Made by a program: the position numbers and the translations under genes
Shown here: positions 5,846 to 29,675 of the stretch, one piece after another
Layout of the letters: every line of letters begins with the position of its first letter
Numbering within the stretch: the stretch's first letter is position 1
Notes under the pieces: model-generated
Told to the model about the DNA's origin: nothing
Database searches by the model: none
Seen by the model: the letters and a program-made list of their open reading frames with translations, nothing else
NCBI GenBank assembly: GCA_016790165.1
Contig: JAEUPL010000021.1
Span: 62,001 to 126,000 of the forward strand
DNA: 64,000 nucleotides
Source: Burkholderiales bacterium
Lineage (GTDB): Bacteria > Pseudomonadota > Gammaproteobacteria > Burkholderiales > Casimicrobiaceae
Direction: 5' to 3'

Positions 5846-6037
5846 ATGGAACTGTTCGCTGCGCTTTGCCTGGTGCTCGTCGTCGAGGGGCTGATGCCGT
5901 TTCTCGCGCCGCGCATCTGGCGCGAGACCATGCGCAAAGCGATGGAGCTGTCCGACGGGCAGCTTCGCACGGTCGGGCTGATCTCGATCCTGATTGGACT
6001 CGCGGCGTACTGGTTGACCGTCGCGTTCGGTGGCTAG
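5846..6037 (+). CDS. DUF2065 small membrane protein (YjeT-like)
   Basis: A 63-aa protein with two hydrophobic segments (LFAALCLVLVVEGLMPFL and VGLISILIGLAAYWLTVAF) separated by a short basic loop (RIWRETMRKAMEL). This matches the DUF2065/YjeT family, which is found directly after hflC in many proteobacteria. Function is unknown; the location suggests an accessory inner-membrane partner of HflKC/FtsH, which is inference. It is the last gene of the plus-strand cluster before the convergent zapE. Confidence 0.85.
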   Translation: MELFAALCLVLVVEGLMPFLAPRIWRETMRKAMELSDGQLRTVGLISILIGLAAYWLTVAFGG

Positions 6038-6046
6038 CCTCAGCGA

Positions 6047-6168
6047 AACAGCTTTTTCTACGAAACGACCGCTCAGCGGTCATTGGCAGCCAGCCAGAAG
6101 CAAAGTCGACTTCTAGAAAATAGTCGACGAAACCGGCGCCGGCTGGTCGATATCGCTAAAAAGCTGTT
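6047..6168. repeat. 122-bp dyad-symmetric interspersed element, copy A
   Basis: Lies between the convergent DUF2065 and zapE genes. Ends are AACAGCTTTTT (6047-6057) and AAAAAGCTGTT (6158-6168); the pairing extends outward (CAGCGAA versus TTCGCTG) with one bulged A. Internal features: AACGACC, an AGCGGTC block (GACCGCTCAGCGGTC is itself a palindrome), GTCGAC at the exact centre (positions 59-64 of 122), GTCGACT/AGTCGAC arms and a CCGGCGCCGG palindrome. It aligns without gaps at landmark positions with copies at 21058 and 28644. It has no coding capacity. Both flanking genes run toward it, so it could also act as a bidirectional terminator. Confidence 0.8.
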
Positions 6169-6183
6169 CGCTGCAAAAATGGA

Positions 6184-7305
6184 CTAGCGGATCAGCGACG
6201 GCAAATGCGGCTCGCTCATGTATTCCGCACTCTGCATCTCTGTAAGCCGCGATGCCGTCCGTGCGAACTCCGTCAACACGCGCCGCGTATCGCTGTCCTT
6301 GATGGTGTCGTCAACGTGCGCAATCTCGGCGAGCGGCGCCGCGGCGCTGATGATGAGTTTCACCCGATGGTCGTAGAGCACGTCGACCAGCAGGGTCAAC
6401 CGCCGGATGACATTGCTGTCCCGCGTCGCCAGCGGCGGCACGTTGGACAGGATGAGCGTGTGATACGACTGCGCGAGTTCGAGGTAATCGTTCTGCGACC
6501 GCGGGGTTTCGCAAAGGGCCGCGAAGTCGAACCAGATCACCCCATCGGTCTGCCGACGCACCACCACGTCGCGCCCAAGAATCGTGATGTGCTTCTCGGT
6601 CGACGGCTTGGACGTCGACAGTCGCGCGAAGGTCGCAGCAAGCTTGCCGTCGGTTTCCTGCCCCAGCGGGCTGTGATAAACGTGGTCCTGCTCGAGTGTT
6701 CGGCGCCGATAGTCGACGCCGCTGTCCACCTCAATCACGTCCATCTGATCCTTGATCAGCGCGATCGTCGGCAGGAAGTTCTGCCGCTGCAGGCCATCCG
6801 GATAGAGCCGGTCCGGCGGATAGTTCGACGTCATCACGAACACGATGCCGTTGTCGAGGCAGTTTGACAGCAGACGCCCGAGGATCATCGCGTCCGCGAT
6901 GTCGCTGACGTGAAACTCGTCAAAGCAAATCAGCCGGTAACGCTCGGCCAGACTTTCGGCCACCACGACCAGCGGATCGGCCTCGTGCTTCAGGCCGCGC
7001 AGCTCGGCGTGCACGCTGCGCATGAAGGCGTGAAAGTGCACGCGCACCTTGCGGCGCACGCGCGTAGTCGCGTAGAACGCGTCCATGAGGAAGCTCTTGC
7101 CGCGCCCAACACCGCCGTGGAAGTAGACACCACGCGGAACCTGGGGGCGCGCAAACATCCGCCCGAGCCCCATCAACGACGCCCGCTTGTCTTTGAAGCG
7201 GTGCAGCTCATCATTGAGCTGGGCCAGCCGCGCGGCGGCCCGCTGCTGCGCGGGATCAAGGATGATCCCGCGTTCCTGACAGATTTTTTCCAGGTTCTGC
7301 AGCAC
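6184..7305 (-). CDS. zapE: Cell division ATPase ZapE (AFG1-like)
   Basis: AFG1/ZapE family P-loop ATPase; ZapE interacts with FtsZ and affects Z-ring stability in Escherichia coli. The protein is 373 aa, near identical to the usual length. Walker A is GGVGRGKS (residues 64-71), Walker B is LICFDEFHV, and the sensor-like stretch VFVMTSNYPPDRLYPDGLQR is typical. The start is a GTG at 7305 with a weak ribosome-binding site; family alignment supports it. It is the last gene of the odh-lpd minus-strand block, 44 bp after lpd, an association also seen in other betaproteobacteria. Confidence 0.93.
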   Translation of the reverse strand: MLQNLEKICQERGIILDPAQQRAAARLAQLNDELHRFKDKRASLMGLGRMFARPQVPRGVYFHGGVGRGKSFLMDAFYATTRVRRKVRVHFHAFMRSVHAELRGLKHEADPLVVVAESLAERYRLICFDEFHVSDIADAMILGRLLSNCLDNGIVFVMTSNYPPDRLYPDGLQRQNFLPTIALIKDQMDVIEVDSGVDYRRRTLEQDHVYHSPLGQETDGKLAATFARLSTSKPSTEKHITILGRDVVVRRQTDGVIWFDFAALCETPRSQNDYLELAQSYHTLILSNVPPLATRDSNVIRRLTLLVDVLYDHRVKLIISAAAPLAEIAHVDDTIKDSDTRRVLTEFARTASRLTEMQSAEYMSEPHLPSLIR

Positions 7306-21057: not shown

Positions 21058-21179
21058 AACAGCTTTTTGGCCTGAACGTCTGCTAGACGGTCGTTTCCGG
21101 CGAAAAAACTGGATTGTCGATATTGCGTTGAATCGGGCTGCAAGCGCCGCCCGGCTGTCGCTGAAAGGAAAAAGCTGAT
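21058..21179. repeat. 122-bp dyad-symmetric interspersed element, copy B
   Basis: Ends are AACAGCTTTTT (21058-21068) and AAAAAGCTGAT (21169-21179), exactly 122 bp as in copy A. ACG (offset 19-21), GGTC (offset 32-35) and central GTCGAT (offset 59-64) fall at the same offsets as in the other copies. Its right end contains the prpB ribosome-binding region (GAAAGGAAAAAGCTG) and the first two bases of the prpB start codon, so the element has become part of that gene's translation signal. Confidence 0.75.
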
Positions 21180-22065
21180 GTCTCTCCCCTCCCCCGGCGC
21201 CGCTTTTCGTGCGGCCCTCAAAGCCGAATCCCCCCTGCAAGTCATCGGCACGATCAACGCCAATCACGCCCTGCTCGCCAAACGCGCAGGGTTCAAGGCG
21301 ATTTACCTTTCGGGCGGTGGAGTTGCAGCGGGCTCGCTGGGTCTGCCGGACCTTGGCATCAACAACCTCGACGACGTGCTGACCGACGTGCGCCGCATCA
21401 CCGATGTGTGCGACGTGCCGCTGATGGTGGACATCGACACCGGCTTTGGCCCCAGTGCGTTCAACATCGCGCGCACGGTGAAATCGCTGATCAAGTTCGG
21501 CGCGGCGGCCTGCCACATTGAAGATCAAGTTGGCGCCAAACGCTGTGGCCATCGCCCCGGCAAGGAAATCGTCACGACTGAAGAAATGGTGGATCGCGTG
21601 AAGGCCGCCGCTGATGCGAAGATCGACCCGGATTTCTTCCTGATCGCCCGCACCGACGCCATCCAGGCGTTCGGCGTGGACGCCGCGATCGAACGCGCGA
21701 TCAAGTGCGTCGAGGCCGGCGCCGATGCCATCTTCGCCGAAGCCGCGTACGACCTCCCGACCTATCGCAAGTTTGTTGACGCGGTGAAGGTGCCGGTGCT
21801 CGCCAACATCACCGAATTCGGGCAGACGCCGTTGTTCACGGTGGAAGAGCTCAAGAGCGCCGGCTGTGGCATGGTGCTCTACCCACTCTCCGGCTTCCGC
21901 GCTGCCAACAAGGCCGCCGAAAACGTATTTCAGGCCATCCGCCGCGACGGCCATCAGAAGAACGTGATCGACACCATGCAAACCCGCACGGAGCTTTACG
22001 ACCGCATCAACTACCACGCGTTTGAGAACCATCTTGACGCGCTGTTTGCGGCGAAGAAGGCGTAA
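21178..22065 (+). CDS. prpB: 2-methylisocitrate lyase
   Basis: Cleaves 2-methylisocitrate to pyruvate and succinate, last step of the methylcitrate cycle for propionyl-CoA. 295 aa, the usual PrpB size, and the catalytic loop reads [10 protein letters not shown] (K121, C123, H125), as in PrpB. True isocitrate lyases are much longer and carry KKCGHMGGK. Other family blocks: [18 protein letters not shown] and MVDIDTGFG. The start ATG lies at the edge of repeat copy B. First gene of prpB-prpC-acnD-prpF. Confidence 0.95.
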
Positions 22066-24810: not shown

Positions 24811-27408
24811 ATGTCAGACCGCAAACCACTCCCCGGAACCTCGCTTCAGTACTTCGACGCGGCTGCCGCCGTCAACCGCCTGCAGCCGGGTGCCTGGGCC
24901 AAACTTCCGTACACCGCCCGTGTGCACGCCGAAAACATCGTGCGTAAGGCCGAGCCGGCAAAGATCAACGACTACCTGAACCAACTCATCCTGCGCAAGC
25001 GTGAGCTCGACTTCCCGTGGTTCCCGGCACGCGTGGTGTGCCATGACATCCTCGGCCAAACGGCGCTCGTCGACTTGGCTGGCCTGCGCGACGCGATTGC
25101 CGATCAGGGCGGCGACCCGGCCAAGGTCAATCCGGTGGTGCCGGTGCAGTTGATCGTGGACCACTCGCTCGCCGTGGAATGCGGCGGTTTTGATCCGGAT
25201 GCCTTCGCCAAGAACCGCGCGATTGAAGACCGTCGCAACGAAGACCGCTTCCACTTCATCGAGTGGACCAAGAAAGCGTTCAAGAACGTTGACGTGATCC
25301 CGGCCGGCAACGGCATCATGCACCAGATCAATCTCGAGCGCATGAGCCCGGTGATTGGCGTGCAGGACGGCGTGGCCTACCCCGACACCTGCGTCGGCAC
25401 CGACAGTCACACACCGCACGTCGACGCGCTGGGCGTGATCGCCGTCGGTGTTGGCGGCCTCGAGGCCGAGAACGTAATGCTCGGACGCGCATCCTGGATG
25501 CGGCTGCCCGACATTGTCGGTGTGGAGCTGTCGGGCAAACCGCAACCGGGCATCACGGCGACCGACGTGGTGCTGGCGCTGACCGAGTTCCTGCGCAAGG
25601 AAAAGGTCGTCGGCGCCTACCTCGAGTTCCGTGGCGAAGGCGCGGCCGCACTCACGCTCGGCGACCGTGCCACGATTTCGAACATGGCCCCGGAGTACGG
25701 TGCCACCGCCGCGATGTTCTTCATCGACGAAAAGACCATCGACTACCTCAAGCTCACCGGCCGCGATGACAAACAAGTCGCGTTGGTCGAGACCTACGCG
25801 AAGACGGCTGGCCTGTGGGCTGACGCCCTCGCCACTGCAGAATACGAGCGCACGCTGCGCTTTGATCTCTCGACTGTGGTGCGCAACATGGCCGGCCCGT
25901 CGAACCCGCACAAGCGCCTGCCGACCACTGCGCTCGCCGAGCGCGGTATTGCGGCGCCCTGGCGAATGCCCGCAGCGAACGAAGGCACGATGCCTGACGG
26001 CGCGGTGATCATCGCCGCGATCACCAGCTGCACCAATACCTCCAACCCGCGTAACGTGATTGCCGCGGGCCTGCTCGCACGCAACGCCAACGCGCGCGGC
26101 CTCACCCGCAAGCCCTGGGTGAAAACCTCGCTCGCCCCCGGATCGAAGGCCGTGCAGCTCTATCTCGAAGAAGCCAAGCTGCTGCCCGAACTGCAAGCGC
26201 TCGGTTTTGGCATCGTTGCCTTCGCCTGCACCACGTGCAATGGCATGAGCGGGGCGCTTGACCCGAAAATCCAGCAGGAGATCATCGACCGCGATCTGTA
26301 CGCCACGGCCGTGCTGTCCGGCAACCGCAATTTCGATGGCCGCATCCATCCGTATGCGAAGCAGGCTTTCCTGGCCTCGCCGCCACTGGTGATCGCCTAC
26401 GCCATCGCGGGCACCGTGCGCTTTGACATCGAGAAAGACGTGCTCGGCACCGACGCGCAAGGCAAACCCGTCATGCTGAAAGACATTTGGCCGAGCGATG
26501 AAGAAATCGATGCGGTGATCGCAAAGAGCGTGAAGCCAGAGCAGTTCCGCAAGGTCTACGAGCCGATGTTCACCTTCGCCGCCGCCACGGGCGAGAAGAT
26601 CAGCCCGCTCTACGACTGGCGCGCACCGAGCACCTACATCCGCCGCCCGCCGTACTGGGAAGGCGCGCTTGCGGGTGAGCGCACGCTGCGCGGCCTGCGT
26701 CCGCTGGCGGTGTTGCCCGACAACATCACCACCGATCACCTGTCGCCGTCGAATGCGATTCTGGGCGACTCCGCCGCCGGCGAATACCTCAAGAAAATGG
26801 GCCTGCCGGAAGAGGACTACAACAGCTACGCCACGCACCGCGGCGATCACCTCACGGCACAGCGGGCGACGTTTGCCAACCCGACGCTGATGAACGAGAT
26901 GGTCAAGGATGCGGACGGCAAGGTCAAGAAGGGCTCGCTCGCCCGCGTGGAGCCCGAAGGCAAGGTGATGCGCATGTGGGAGGCCATCGAGACCTACATG
27001 AACCGCAAGCAGCCGCTCATCATCATCGCGGGTGCCGACTATGGTCAGGGCAGCTCGCGCGACTGGGCCGCGAAGGGCGTGCGCCTGGCGGGGGTTGAAG
27101 TGATCGTGGCGGAAGGCTTCGAGCGCATCCACCGCACCAACCTGATCGGCATGGGTGTGCTGCCGCTCGAGTTCAAGGCGGGCACCACGCGCCTGACGCT
27201 TGGCATCGATGGCACCGAGACGTACGACGTGATCGGCGAGCGCACGCCGCGCGCCACGCTCACGCTGGTCATCCGCCGCAGGAACGGCGACGTGGTGGAA
27301 GTGCCCGTCACCTGCCGCCTCGACACCGCCGAGGAGATTTCGGTGTACGACGCCGGCGGCGTCCTGCAACGCTTCGCCAAGGACTTCCTCGAAGGAGCGG
27401 TCGCATGA
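24811..27408 (+). CDS. acnD: Fe/S-dependent 2-methylcitrate dehydratase AcnD
   Basis: Aconitase-A-like enzyme that dehydrates 2-methylcitrate, replacing PrpD in many proteobacteria and acting together with PrpF. 865 aa. The 4Fe-4S ligands lie in ITSCTNTSNPRNVIAAGLLA and ACTTCNGMSG. Substrate and swivel-domain motifs include GTDSHTPHVDALGVIAVGVGG and ADYGQGSSRDWAAKG. AcnD assignment over AcnA rests on the adjacency and 4-bp overlap with prpF and on prpBC upstream. A 132-bp leader containing GC-rich hairpins precedes the gene. Confidence 0.94.
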   Translation: MSDRKPLPGTSLQYFDAAAAVNRLQPGAWAKLPYTARVHAENIVRKAEPAKINDYLNQLILRKRELDFPWFPARVVCHDILGQTALVDLAGLRDAIADQGGDPAKVNPVVPVQLIVDHSLAVECGGFDPDAFAKNRAIEDRRNEDRFHFIEWTKKAFKNVDVIPAGNGIMHQINLERMSPVIGVQDGVAYPDTCVGTDSHTPHVDALGVIAVGVGGLEAENVMLGRASWMRLPDIVGVELSGKPQPGITATDVVLALTEFLRKEKVVGAYLEFRGEGAAALTLGDRATISNMAPEYGATAAMFFIDEKTIDYLKLTGRDDKQVALVETYAKTAGLWADALATAEYERTLRFDLSTVVRNMAGPSNPHKRLPTTALAERGIAAPWRMPAANEGTMPDGAVIIAAITSCTNTSNPRNVIAAGLLARNANARGLTRKPWVKTSLAPGSKAVQLYLEEAKLLPELQALGFGIVAFACTTCNGMSGALDPKIQQEIIDRDLYATAVLSGNRNFDGRIHPYAKQAFLASPPLVIAYAIAGTVRFDIEKDVLGTDAQGKPVMLKDIWPSDEEIDAVIAKSVKPEQFRKVYEPMFTFAAATGEKISPLYDWRAPSTYIRRPPYWEGALAGERTLRGLRPLAVLPDNITTDHLSPSNAILGDSAAGEYLKKMGLPEEDYNSYATHRGDHLTAQRATFANPTLMNEMVKDADGKVKKGSLARVEPEGKVMRMWEAIETYMNRKQPLIIIAGADYGQGSSRDWAAKGVRLAGVEVIVAEGFERIHRTNLIGMGVLPLEFKAGTTRLTLGIDGTETYDVIGERTPRATLTLVIRRRNGDVVEVPVTCRLDTAEEISVYDAGGVLQRFAKDFLEGAVA

Positions 27409-28604
27409 GTGGCCACCCAGCCCAGATCAAGATTCCCGCCACGTACCTGCGTGGCGGCACGTCAAAAGGCGTGTTCTTCAAACTGACCGATCTGCCCGTC
27501 GCCGCGCAGCAGCCCGGCCCCGTGCGCGACGCGATATTGCTGCGCGTGATCGGTTCGCCCGACCCGTACGGCAAGCAGATCGACGGCATGGGCGGCGCCA
27601 CATCGAGCACCTCCAAGACGGTGATCCTCGCGAAAAGCAGCAAACCGGATCACGATGTCGATTACCTCTTCGGTCAGGTCTCGATCGATAAGGCGTTTGT
27701 GGACTGGTCCGGCAACTGCGGCAACCTCTCCGCCGCAGTGGGGCCGTTCGCAATCAGCAACGGGCTGGTCGATGCGTCGCGCGTGCCGCAAAACGGCGTC
27801 GCCACGATCCGCATCTGGCAAGTGAACATCCAGAAGACCATCATCGCGCACGTGCCCATCACCCACGGCGCAGTACAGGAGACCGGGGACTTCGAACTCG
27901 ACGGCGTGACCTTTCCGGCGGCCGAAGTGCAACTTGAATTTCTCGATCCTGCCGACGAAGGCGAAGGCGATGCTGGCGGCGCGATGTTCCCCACCGGCAA
28001 TCTGGTTGACGATCTCGTCGTGCCCGGCGTGGGCACGCTCAAGGCCACGATGATCAACGCGGGCATCCCGACCGTGTTCGTCAACGCGAGGGACATCAAC
28101 TACACCGGTACCGAGCTGCAGGATGCCATCAACGGCGACGCCAAAGCACTCGCGATGTTCGAGACGATTCGCGCCCACGGCGCGCTGCGCATGGGCCTGA
28201 TCAAGTCGCTCGACGATGCGGCAACGCGCCAGCACACGCCCAAAGTCGCCTTCGTCGCACCGGCCACGAGCTATGCCTCGTCAAGCGGCAAGGGGGTGCA
28301 GGCCGCAGATATCGATCTCTGCGTGCGCGCGCTGTCCATGGGTAAGCTGCACCACGCCATGATGGGCACCGCAGCCGTTGCCATCGGCACCGCGGCGGCC
28401 ATCCCCGGCACGCTCGTCAACCTCGCCGCAGGCGGTGGCCAGAAAGACGCCGTGCGCTTCGGCCACCCCTCCGGCACACTGCGTGTCGGCGCCGAGGCGA
28501 CGCAGGAAGGCGGCGAATGGGTGGTCAAAAAGGCCGTCATGAGCCGCAGTGCGCGCGTGCTGATGGAAGGCGTGGTGCGCATTCCGCCGGTGGCGGGTCT
28601 GTAG
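27405..28604 (+). CDS. prpF: PrpF, AcnD-accessory isomerase
   Basis: PrpF-family protein (DAP-epimerase-like fold) that isomerises the trans-2-methylaconitate made by AcnD to the cis form, so that an aconitase can complete the conversion. 399 aa; characteristic segments PATYLRGGTSKGVFF near the N-terminus, DGMGGATSSTSKTVIL, and DWSGNCGNLSAAVGPFAI. The ATG overlaps the acnD stop by four bases (ATGA), indicating translational coupling. acnB, encoded 1.1 kb downstream, can supply the hydration step. Confidence 0.96.
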   Translation: MSGHPAQIKIPATYLRGGTSKGVFFKLTDLPVAAQQPGPVRDAILLRVIGSPDPYGKQIDGMGGATSSTSKTVILAKSSKPDHDVDYLFGQVSIDKAFVDWSGNCGNLSAAVGPFAISNGLVDASRVPQNGVATIRIWQVNIQKTIIAHVPITHGAVQETGDFELDGVTFPAAEVQLEFLDPADEGEGDAGGAMFPTGNLVDDLVVPGVGTLKATMINAGIPTVFVNARDINYTGTELQDAINGDAKALAMFETIRAHGALRMGLIKSLDDAATRQHTPKVAFVAPATSYASSSGKGVQAADIDLCVRALSMGKLHHAMMGTAAVAIGTAAAIPGTLVNLAAGGGQKDAVRFGHPSGTLRVGAEATQEGGEWVVKKAVMSRSARVLMEGVVRIPPVAGL

Positions 28605-28643: not shown

Positions 28644-28766
28644 TACAGCTTTTTGCCACCAACGACTGTATGACGGTCGATACAGCCTGAAAAGCGCTCA
28701 TGTCGACTTGAGGTCATTTCGCGCCCATAGTGACCGTACACCGGTCGTTGCAGCAGAAAAGCTGTT
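28644..28766. repeat. 122/123-bp dyad-symmetric interspersed element, copy C
   Basis: Most symmetric copy. Paired arms in order are CAGCTTTT/AAAAGCTG, CAACGAC/GTCGTTG and ACGGTC/GACCGT. Each is separated by exactly 6 unpaired bases on both sides, with GTCGAC (28702-28707) in the middle. GGTC and GTCGA sit at the same offsets as in copies A and B. It lies between prpF and the toxin-antitoxin promoter and could act as a terminator for prpF. Confidence 0.8.
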
Positions 28767-28836: not shown

Positions 28837-29256
28837 ATGGAAGCCACTCTCGCCGAACGCGGTCAGGTCGTCATCCCGAAAGCCATTCGCGATCAACTGG
28901 GTTTATCCGCGGGTACGTTGCTGACCTTCACGGTCGAGGGCGGCAAACTCATCATCCGCAAGAAGGTCGACGATGCTTTCAGTCGTGCGCGGGGTCTGCT
29001 CAAGCTCGAACCCGGCGAAACGGTGGAGAGCATCATGCGCGATCTGCGCGGTCGCGCGCCCAACGACCCCATCGAGCCGTGGGAAGAATTGCGCGACGAC
29101 ATTGAGCTTCCGGCTGCCGTGCGCGAAGACCACGCACGTCGCCGCGCCGCCTGGCTTGCCGCGCAAGCCGTCGCGCCGAGCGCAGGCGCGCCGGCGCCTG
29201 CCATCACGTCACGCAAGCGCCAACCCAAGGCCGCACGCGGAGGCACGCGCGCATGA
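28837..29256 (+). CDS. AbrB/SpoVT-type antitoxin (VapB/MazE-like)
   Basis: DNA-binding antitoxin of a type II toxin-antitoxin pair. The N-terminal swapped-hairpin AbrB domain is clear: MEATLAERGQVVIPKAIRDQLGL and GTLLTFTVEGGKLIIRKK. The middle (about 55-100) is acidic and would wrap the toxin. The tail is unusually long, rich in Ala and Pro and ends in basic residues (RKRQPKAARGG); 139 aa is long for VapB. The stop overlaps the toxin start by 4 bp. Confidence 0.85.
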   Translation: MEATLAERGQVVIPKAIRDQLGLSAGTLLTFTVEGGKLIIRKKVDDAFSRARGLLKLEPGETVESIMRDLRGRAPNDPIEPWEELRDDIELPAAVREDHARRRAAWLAAQAVAPSAGAPAPAITSRKRQPKAARGGTRA

Positions 29257-29675
29257 TCGCGGTCGACTCCAGCGTGCTGATCGACATGCTCTTTGACGGC
29301 CCCGACGCCGAGCAAAGCACACAGACCTTGAGCGACGCAGCCCAAATTGGGCGCCTCGCGCTCTCCGACGTTGCGATGGCAGAACTCTGCTCGCGCGGCG
29401 ACAGCGAGGCGACCCGCAAGACGCTGGCGAGCCTCGGATTTCTGTTTGTGCCCACCAACGAAACGGCGGCCATTCGCGCCGGCGAAATGTCCAAGCGCTA
29501 TCGAAAAAACGGCGGCACCCGATCACGCATCGTCGCCGACTTTCTCATCGGGGCGCACGCACTCATGCAGTGCGATGGCCTCATCACTTACGACGGTGGT
29601 TTTCACCGCGACTACTTCAAGGGCCTGCGCGTCATCATCCCCGGCGACGCCGACGCGCTGCCTGCTGCTCACTAA
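29253..29675 (+). CDS. PIN-domain ribonuclease toxin (VapC-like)
   Basis: VapC-family PIN nuclease, typically cleaving tRNA or rRNA when freed from its antitoxin. 140 aa with the four acidic metal ligands in the expected places: D5 (IAVDSSVL), E44 (AELCSR), D96 (VADFLIG) and D114 ([11 protein letters not shown]). The ATG overlaps the antitoxin stop (ATGA), giving coupled translation. All catalytic residues are intact. It sits between prpF and acnB, separating the methylcitrate operon from aconitase B. Confidence 0.88.

What the first reader, a model, noticed from the sequence alone, without database searches (positions are those of the whole stretch)
6047..6168. Family of 122-bp dyad-symmetric intergenic elements (copy A of three)
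Three intergenic sequences (6047-6168, 21058-21179, 28644-28766) share ends AACAGCTTTTT and AAAAAGCTGTT (one end changed in each of the other copies) at the same distance (122, 122 and 123 bp). They also share ACG at offset 19, GGTC at offset 32 and GTCGA(C/T) at the exact centre. The rest has diverged while staying palindromic. Fixed length with drifting sequence suggests an old, folded element with selection on structure (RNA hairpin, transcription terminator, protein-bound DNA or a MITE-like element), not random hairpins. I do not recognise it as a named repeat family.
Basis: partly seen in the sequence, partly recalled or inferred. Interest (0 to 1): 0.8.

Follow-up and report, generated by a model that had tools for sequence, protein, structure and literature searches.

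The report
Dispersed two-fold symmetric 116-bp DNA sites
One genus of Burkholderiales bacteria carries, in most of its genomes, many copies of a fixed-length, mirror-symmetric DNA site between its genes; the copies share only scattered letters at exact spacings, which looks more like a large protein docking site kept by selection than a folded RNA or an ordinary jumping repeat.

Summary
The three elements are real. Two whole contigs (571 kb) hold 34 copies, so about 220 per genome: nearly all intergenic, mostly 116 bp from AGCT to AGCT, about 94 bits of conserved letters. Reversed controls give none. Related families occur in 16 of 17 genomes of the genus and 0 of 47 genomes in six other genera of its family.

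The "folded" reading fails. Neither the full palindrome nor the arms covary (84 copies; six other genomes with 5-23 copies), so the constraint acts on duplex DNA. Each half carries an end (wACAGCTTTTT), two opposed half-sites, an AT tract and half of a central aaGTCGACtt. Elsewhere copies differ like independent draws. Syntenic copies in other species keep the landmarks while free columns are near saturation, and half-sites and spacing mostly follow the lineage (114 bp in one species).

This fits a large dyad-symmetric protein-DNA complex whose binder changes specificity. Binder and function are unknown. Sites are also gained or lost, and a mobile origin is likely. Tested criteria of REPINs and intrinsic terminators were not met; the gyrase motif stays inconclusive. 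AT content is phased at about 9.6 bp, suggesting bending or wrapping.

The parts
6047..6168 (.). Copy A, full element (116 bp AGCT-to-AGCT plus 3 bp each side), between convergent genes (DUF2065 gene 5846-6037 + and zapE/AFG1-type ATPase gene 6184-7305 -)
   Evidence: element also at the syntenic site in G005, G008, G012, G013, G015, G004 and G006
6047..6057 (+). Copy A left end patch AACAGCTTTTT
   Evidence: conserved patch in 84 copies
6064..6069 (+). Copy A left arm, outer half-site (A.CGAC)
   Evidence: columns 15-20
6077..6084 (-). Copy A left arm, inner half-site (cGGTcgtT, opposed orientation)
   Evidence: columns 28-35
6093..6097 (.). Copy A left AT-tract position (weak in this copy; consensus attTt)
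   Evidence: columns 44-48
6105..6110 (.). Copy A centre GTCGAC, the dyad
   Evidence: columns 56-61
6131..6138 (+). Copy A right arm, inner half-site position (mirror)
   Evidence: mirror of the left arm
6146..6151 (-). Copy A right arm, outer half-site position (mirror)
   Evidence: mirror of the left arm
6158..6168 (-). Copy A right end patch AAAAAGCTGTT
21058..21179 (.). Copy B; its right end overlaps the predicted ATG (21178) of prpB (methylisocitrate lyase); centre GTCGAT
   Evidence: same placement against the prpB start in eight other genomes (G001, G003, G004, G005, G008, G012, G013, G015)
28644..28766 (.). Copy C (117 bp AGCT-to-AGCT), between prpF (27405-28604 +) and a MazE/AbrB-type antitoxin gene (28837-29256 +); centre GTCGAC

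Best explanation
The elements are large, dyad-symmetric recognition sites on double-stranded DNA. Each half offers five contact patches at fixed distances from the dyad: an end patch (wACAGCTTTTT, about 54 bp out), an outer and an inner opposed half-site (about 40 and 27 bp out), an AT tract (about 12.5 bp out) and half of the central aaGTCGACtt. A two-fold-symmetric assembly of one or a few sequence-specific DNA-binding proteins, not yet identified, would sit on the whole of about 120 bp and probably bend or wrap it. The sites stand between transcription units, often just after stop codons, along the whole chromosome, which fits a chromosome-organising or boundary role. The sites must once have been spread by copying, because about 94 bits cannot arise some 220 times by chance. 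Since then they have been held by selection at individual places, while the preferred half-site and the spacing shifted in most copies of a lineage together, as expected if the binder changed specificity. SHOWN: the pattern, spacing, copy number, intergenic placement, absence of detectable covariation, absence of copy-to-copy relatedness, retention at a number of syntenic sites with mostly lineage-typed half-sites, restriction to the genus within the genomes searched. INFERRED: the protein, the wrapping, the boundary role, the ancient dispersal, the selection on single sites as its cause.
For: Symmetric five-patch pattern with 46.9 bits per half. Length 116 in 16 of 20 exact-end copies and 84 of 87 model copies (this finder favours 116). 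No covariation: full palindrome 2790 observed against 2846 expected; arm register 1230 against 1255; in six other genomes with 5 to 23 copies each the largest z was 1.9 (low power). Copies behave as independent draws from the matrix: mean identity at 48 free columns 0.362 against 0.363 simulated, largest 0.604 against 0.56-0.63; same for 27 copies of G015, 0.373 against 0.382. In contig C18 all 21 copies score 62 bits or more, with nothing between 5 and 62. Syntenic copies, 24 pairs: free columns 31% identical against 28% for unrelated copies, ends 85% (ends helped to place the copies, so this figure is partly by construction); inner half-site GGTC in 0 and GGGC in 23 of 28 arms of G001, G004, G005, G006, G013, G015, but GGTC in 8 of 12 arms of G003 and G008. 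At site B the element keeps its exact place against the prpB start in nine genomes. Spacing 114 bp in 27 of 31 copies of G015. Placement: in tandem gaps 37 of 51 lie nearer the upstream stop codon (p 0.002). No clustering of the 95 best places on the complete G005 chromosome (Kuiper p 0.70). AT content phased at 9.5-9.75 bp in two genomes (block-shuffle p 0.018 and 0.014).
Against: No binder was found or tested. Column-permuted chimeras fold about 6-13% worse than real copies (z -1.3 to -4.2), so some pairing or dinucleotide effect exists. At site B (prpB leader) the left arm keeps a hairpin with what look like compensating changes between species. Sites turn over: own copies in strictly syntenic gaps are present in 3 of 5 in G005 (4 of 6 counting site A) and 3 of 6 in G012. 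Two broken copies lie in C32, two C32 copies score only 52 and 54, and G012 has several partial hits. G012 half-sites are mixed (of 8 arms, 1 GGTC, 2 GGGC). Copy number climbs from 0 (G016) and about 13 (G009) to hundreds, which needs copying at some time. The phasing signal is weak in the flanks alone (p 0.08 here; the G015 flanks peak at 7.25 bp).
Confidence: 0.5

Rival explanations
1. A slow mobile element (MITE- or REPIN-like) whose landmarks are the recognition sites of a transposase or recombinase. Copies look unrelated because each insertion is old, and constraint reflects only what the enzyme needs.
For: Copy numbers differ from 0 to hundreds within the genus. Gains or losses between syntenic gaps. 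Intergenic, 3'-biased placement is what tolerated insertions show. The genome has Y1-type transposase genes, one close to REP-associated tyrosine transposase (NCBIfam 74 bits, under the cut-off of 80).
Against: No pair of copies is closer than chance among 84 copies here and 27 in G015. No target-site duplication (87 copies). No element within about 1.5 kb of the two Y1_Tnp places. Old syntenic copies keep landmarks while free columns are near saturation, and mostly carry the lineage's own half-site, which dead insertions would not do. No arm covariation.
Confidence: 0.3
2. A preferred site for DNA gyrase or another type II topoisomerase that wraps about 130 bp around a dyad, placed downstream of genes to remove positive supercoils.
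For: Dimension and dyad match the E. coli gyrase motif (130 bp, symmetric, phased GC content, sites enriched downstream of highly transcribed operons; PMC6379681, abstract and passages seen). Our element has about 120 bp, phased AT content and a 3'-end bias.
Against: The gyrase motif is described there as degenerate with a 10.75-bp period; here there are about 94 bits of base-specific conservation, a period of 9.5-9.75 and opposed half-sites. Gyrase is general to bacteria (recalled), but the element was found in one genus only.
Confidence: 0.08
3. A structured RNA or single-stranded DNA hairpin element (3'-UTR processing signal, terminator or riboswitch-like leader).
For: Copies A and C fold better than shuffles. 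Real copies fold slightly better than column-permuted chimeras. The left arm at site B keeps pairing across species. In tandem gaps of C18, 9 of 11 gene ends with an element have a terminator-like hairpin against 17 of 56 without, though reversed sequence gives 6 of 11 and 15 of 56.
Against: No covariation in the full palindrome or the arms, in this genome or in the six others examined. RNAalifold pairs only the pattern-selected ends. No Rfam family reaches threshold in the window. Over 101 gene ends facing an element, 45 terminator-like against 58 in reversed sequence.
Confidence: 0.07

Closest known systems
REPIN (inverted REP doublet mobilised by RAYT)
   Same: Two inverted arms with a spacer (71 or 110 bp between the paired repeats in P. 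fluorescens), many extragenic copies, a spacer whose length matters (PMC3116915, abstract and passages seen)
   Different: That paper reports common compensating changes and a long hairpin, and a close relation to specific RAYTs; here no covariation, no element within about 1.5 kb of the two Y1_Tnp places, conserved patches spread over the whole length including the centre, copies mutually unrelated at free positions
GTAG- and CGTC-tagged REPs, BIMEs
   Same: Dispersed intergenic palindromic repeats in high copy (PMC3733652, abstract and passages seen; protein binding by BIMEs from the abstract start of PMC2817692 in a listing)
   Different: Those REPs are 20-40 bp stem-loops with an unpaired GTAG or CGTC tag; this is one 116-bp dyad unit, and I see no such tag in its consensus
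Bacterial MITE-like repeats such as RU-1 (127 bp)
   Same: Similar length and intergenic placement (PMC2759123 seen in a search listing only; its identity with ERIC is recalled)
   Different: No target-site duplication and no similarity between copies beyond landmarks; no parent transposon is known, but none was searched for beyond Y1_Tnp
E. coli gyrase motif
   Same: 130-bp symmetric pattern with phased composition; sites enriched downstream of operons (PMC6379681, abstract and passages seen)
   Different: Degenerate, with a period of 10.75 bp; here highly specific letters, period about 9.6 bp, found in one genus

Membership tests
REPIN | Inverted doublet forming a hairpin with compensating changes | tested here: not met
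   Inverted arms yes, but no covariation in 84 own copies or in six relatives with 5-23 copies; site B is a possible exception
REPIN | Associated RAYT gene next to element copies | tested here: not met
   Two Y1_Tnp places in the genome, no element within about 1.5 kb of either; RAYT-like match under the NCBIfam cut-off
REPIN | Highly similar copies around abundant invariant words | tested here: not met
   Free columns behave as independent draws
MITE | Terminal inverted repeats | tested here: met
   wACAGCTTTTT at both ends, inverted
MITE | Target-site duplication | tested here: not met
   No excess of direct flank repeats of 2-9 bp, offsets 0-3, in 87 copies
MITE | Parent transposon with the same ends | not tested
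   No search for an autonomous element with these ends was made beyond Y1_Tnp
Gyrase motif | About 130 bp, dyad-symmetric, GC content phased at 10.75 bp around a 4-bp cleavage site | tested here: inconclusive
   Size and symmetry fit; best period 9.5-9.75 bp over the half element, weak in the flanks alone; cleavage not testable
Intrinsic terminator | GC-rich hairpin followed by a U run | tested here: not met
   45 of 101 gene ends facing an element against 58 of 101 in reversed sequence; separate terminator-like hairpin beside the element at one site
Rfam RNA families | Match at the gathering score | tested here: not met
   0 matches in the window

The most novel reading that the evidence does not exclude
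A new class of bacterial chromosomal landmark: a chromosome-wide set of 200-350 dyad-symmetric ~120-bp docking sites for a genus-specific DNA-wrapping protein, once spread as a mobile element and then domesticated, in which sites at fixed genomic places have co-evolved as a set with their binder, changing half-site letters and even spacing by 1 bp per half from species to species.
Probability: 0.33. Interest if true: 0.88.

Novelty: new variant of a known kind. Interest (0 to 1): 0.72.

Why it matters
Dispersed bacterial repeats are usually read as selfish or as hairpins. Here the copies have lost family resemblance except for exactly spaced landmarks, so the sequence itself reports selection on each site. 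If a binder exists, this is a case in which a bacterial chromosome carries hundreds of docking sites of one geometry whose co-evolution with a protein can be followed across some sixteen species. That makes boundary, supercoil-domain or loop-anchor ideas directly testable, and gives a way to spot such sites elsewhere: fixed length, no covariation, independent copies.

Tried and rejected
RNA structure: RNAalifold on 17 copies, complementarity at all column pairs and registers, per-genome arm registers; rejected apart from site B. Among all column pairs the best few z were 3-4 (and one of 9 resting on a single copy), as expected from thousands of pairs. Terminator function: inconclusive to negative, against. 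Recent transposition: pairwise identities, flank repeats; no support. Phage carriage: a pattern scan of viral contigs gave 2 stretches, neither scoring with the matrix, so chance matches. Ori/ter clustering: none among the 95 best places of the complete G005 chromosome (capped list). Literature: searches listed no paper that describes this element; only the first 2-15 rows of each were shown, and the library holds open-licence PMC papers only. My guess that the genus is Casimicrobium is recalled and was not confirmed. The finder favours 116 bp and missed two 115-bp copies (C11:95797, C32:58796); the four 111-bp lengths may come from the order in which lengths were tried. In one search three loosely anchored pairs were dropped (C17:26351, C5:19453, C8:60873), the repeat of site B was counted once, L083 (seen by eye) was not added, and the site A/B/C rows of G002, G007, G010, G011 and G014 were left out because their elements are too diverged to register. 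The relatives' loci compared had been fetched because they hold an element, so that count leans towards presence; sites A, B, C and the contigs do not lean so.

Full report
WHAT WAS CHECKED. The three sequences are at the stated coordinates with the stated ends and centres. In the window, a sequence-only model (R1) built from 17 copies in this genome, these three included, finds these three places (E below 1e-21) and then nothing better than E 1.4. In the whole 3.76-Mb genome the exact-end pattern has 20 places, against 0 for the reversed pattern; 16 are 116 bp from AGCT to AGCT, three 115 and one 117, although 108 to 131 were allowed. The model search scored 150 of 1117 candidates, and all 150 rows had E below 1e-12 (both strands match because the site is symmetric).

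COPY NUMBER AND PLACEMENT. To avoid selecting for hits I read two whole contigs: C18 (358 kb) has 21 copies, found identically by the matrix and by R1, and C32 (213 kb, the contig of the window) has 13, so about 220 per genome by extrapolation. All 21 copies in C18 score 62 bits or more, nothing scores between 5 and 62, and the reversed contig gives nothing above 5. In C32 two copies score 52 and 54, and two broken copies exist, one with a strong half (51 bits) and one with indels, so decay is seen but is uncommon. Of the 34 copies, 33 have their midpoint outside called genes; one (C32:210555) lies at the 5' end of a called gene, where the start call is uncertain. Gaps of at least 110 bp make up 12% of this sequence; 8 of 23 convergent, 19 of 116 tandem and 6 of 58 divergent ones hold a copy. 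Among 87 copies found in stretches taken round hits, none has its midpoint in a called gene, and 15 overlap a gene end by up to 46 bp; 85 could be classed: 51 tandem, 25 convergent, 9 divergent (2 at edges). In tandem gaps 37 of 51 are nearer the upstream stop codon than the downstream start (p 0.002), median 23 bp from the stop. Genes were called with my own codon-usage script, so start sites are approximate.

ANATOMY. In 84 copies of equal length, the symmetrised profile is aACAGCTTTTt..gc...A.CGAC.g.c...cGGTcgtT.cag.c..atttt.....aAGTCGACTt and its mirror, 46.9 bits per half. Each arm holds two opposed half-sites (AnCGACc and its reverse complement). AT-rich stretches lie near 4, 13, 23.5, 43.5 and 52.5 bp from the dyad; the best period is 9.75 bp here (99 copies) and 9.5 bp in G015 (31 copies), block-shuffle p 0.018 and 0.014, weaker in the flanks alone.

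NOT A FOLD. If the palindrome served a hairpin or cruciform, variable positions would pair within a copy. They do not: 2790 complementary cells against 2846 expected, arms in the hairpin register 1230 against 1255, centre 1238 against 1320 (in the centre two pairs are even less complementary than expected). In G012, G015, G001, G008, G009 and G013 (5 to 23 copies each, so low power) no register exceeds z 1.9, and one in G013 is at -3.0. RNAalifold pairs only the ends, which the pattern had selected. Against this, column-permuted chimeras fold about 6-13% worse than real copies, and at site B the left arm keeps a stem across species with what look like compensating changes. I treat site B as a local RNA-level addition, because it overlaps the prpB leader and start codon.

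NOT A YOUNG REPEAT. At 48 weakly constrained columns the 84 copies are as unlike as independent draws from the matrix (0.362 against 0.363; largest pair 0.604 against 0.56-0.63). The same holds for 27 copies of G015. No flank duplications in 87 copies.

RELATIVES. R1 finds the family in 11 of 60 genomes, this one included, all in the same genus. A second sequence-only model from 57 copies of other genomes finds it in 16 of 17 genus genomes at E 0.01 (capped at 150 scored candidates in most; G016 none; G009 13 places) and in 0 of 47 genomes of six other genera of the family. The named records are metagenome-assembled Burkholderiales, Betaproteobacteria or Pseudomonadota. G005 (one contig, beta clamp and gyrB just after what looks like dnaA at its start, by eye) has 23 copies in 290 kb, and its 95 best places are spread evenly. 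G012 has 31 places in 359 kb, some partial.

SAME PLACES, OTHER LETTERS. Sites A, B and C were followed by their neighbour genes in 16 genus genomes. Site B (14 loci): an element in eight genomes besides this one, at the same distance from the prpB ATG; diverged forms in G002, G011 and G014, doubtful in G007, none seen in G009 and G016. Site A (15 loci): an element in G008, G012, G015, G013, G004 and G006, and in G005 after about 2.3 kb of other sequence; diverged in G011 and G014; no clear match in G002, G007 and G010; none seen in G009 and G016; the G001 contig ends there. Site C (13 loci): an element in G005 and G015 and a diverged one in G011, where the downstream antitoxin gene is also kept; the other ten have other downstream sequence and no element was seen. 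A further comparison used relatives' loci that had been fetched because they hold an element: of 16 rows (13 distinct site and genome pairs) 14 (11) showed an element at once, one more was seen by eye at L083, and one site held a different sequence. In 24 syntenic pairs free columns are 31% identical, near the 28% of unrelated copies; the ends are 85% identical, but ends and centre were used to place the copies, so that figure is partly by construction. The inner half-site at these places contains GGGC in 23 and GGTC in 0 of 28 arms of G001, G004, G005, G006, G013 and G015; GGTC in 8 of 12 and GGGC in 1 of 12 arms of G003 and G008; G012 is mixed. Here GGTC stands in 12 of 18 arms of the nine sites (counted from the rows). 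Spacing also shifts as a set: 116 bp here, 116 in 22 of 23 copies of G008, 114 in 27 of 31 copies of G015. Retention is not complete: in strictly syntenic gaps own copies are present in 3 of 5 (G005) and 3 of 6 (G012); the relatives have 1 and 2 copies that this genome lacks, one of the latter being a gap that holds a broken copy here. One such gap shows stop codon, element, then a terminator-like hairpin in G005 and G012, and only the hairpin here (by eye).

READING. Base-specific landmarks, dyad symmetry, near-exact length, no detectable covariation, no copy phylogeny and lineage-wide change of letters and spacing are what a very large operator-like site would show when its binding protein evolves. 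The copying needed to create some 220 such sites points to an ancient mobile phase; the closest mobile relatives by form are REPINs, whose hairpin covariation and RAYT linkage were tested and not met (definition from passages of PMC3116915). The E. coli gyrase motif (passages of PMC6379681) is the closest in size, symmetry and placement, but is degenerate. The protein, the wrapping and the function are inferences; nothing here tests them directly.

Noticed in passing
window 21058-21186 and loci L228-L237: At the prpB leader the element's left arm forms a stem kept by changing partner bases between species, and the right end (GGAAAAAGCTGATG) holds the likely ribosome site and start codon, so the end stem could mask translation of prpB.
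   Followed up: partly
L100 (G012) about 2090-2283: Where this genome has an element (C30:178426), G012 has a different, repeat-like sequence (GTCATCCTGAGCG...) in a gap of similar size.
   Followed up: no
L173 1243-2485 (G000 C12) and L172 1513-2307 (G000 C7): Two adjacent short Y1-type transposase-like reading frames (only the first was scanned against Pfam; the second looks alike), and one REP-associated tyrosine transposase-like gene; none has an element within about 1.5 kb.
   Followed up: partly
G000 C18:201878 (L305 about 1874-1997): One copy whose left arm looks replaced by an intrinsic terminator (13 bits for that half), with the right arm intact and the total length still 116 bp.
   Followed up: no
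G000 C32:44211 and C32:161239: Two broken copies, one half intact and the other decayed or shifted by indels: uncommon decay products.
   Followed up: partly
L199, L204, L205, L206, L219, L235, L238, L239 (G002, G007, G011, G014): Genomes that R1 missed carry, at some of these sites, a further diverged version with GCCC..GGGC arm palindromes and another centre; their own consensus was not worked out.
   Followed up: partly
window 28837-29675: MazE/AbrB-type antitoxin gene followed by a PIN-domain gene, next to copy C; copy C and the antitoxin start stay together in G005, G015 and G011.
   Followed up: no
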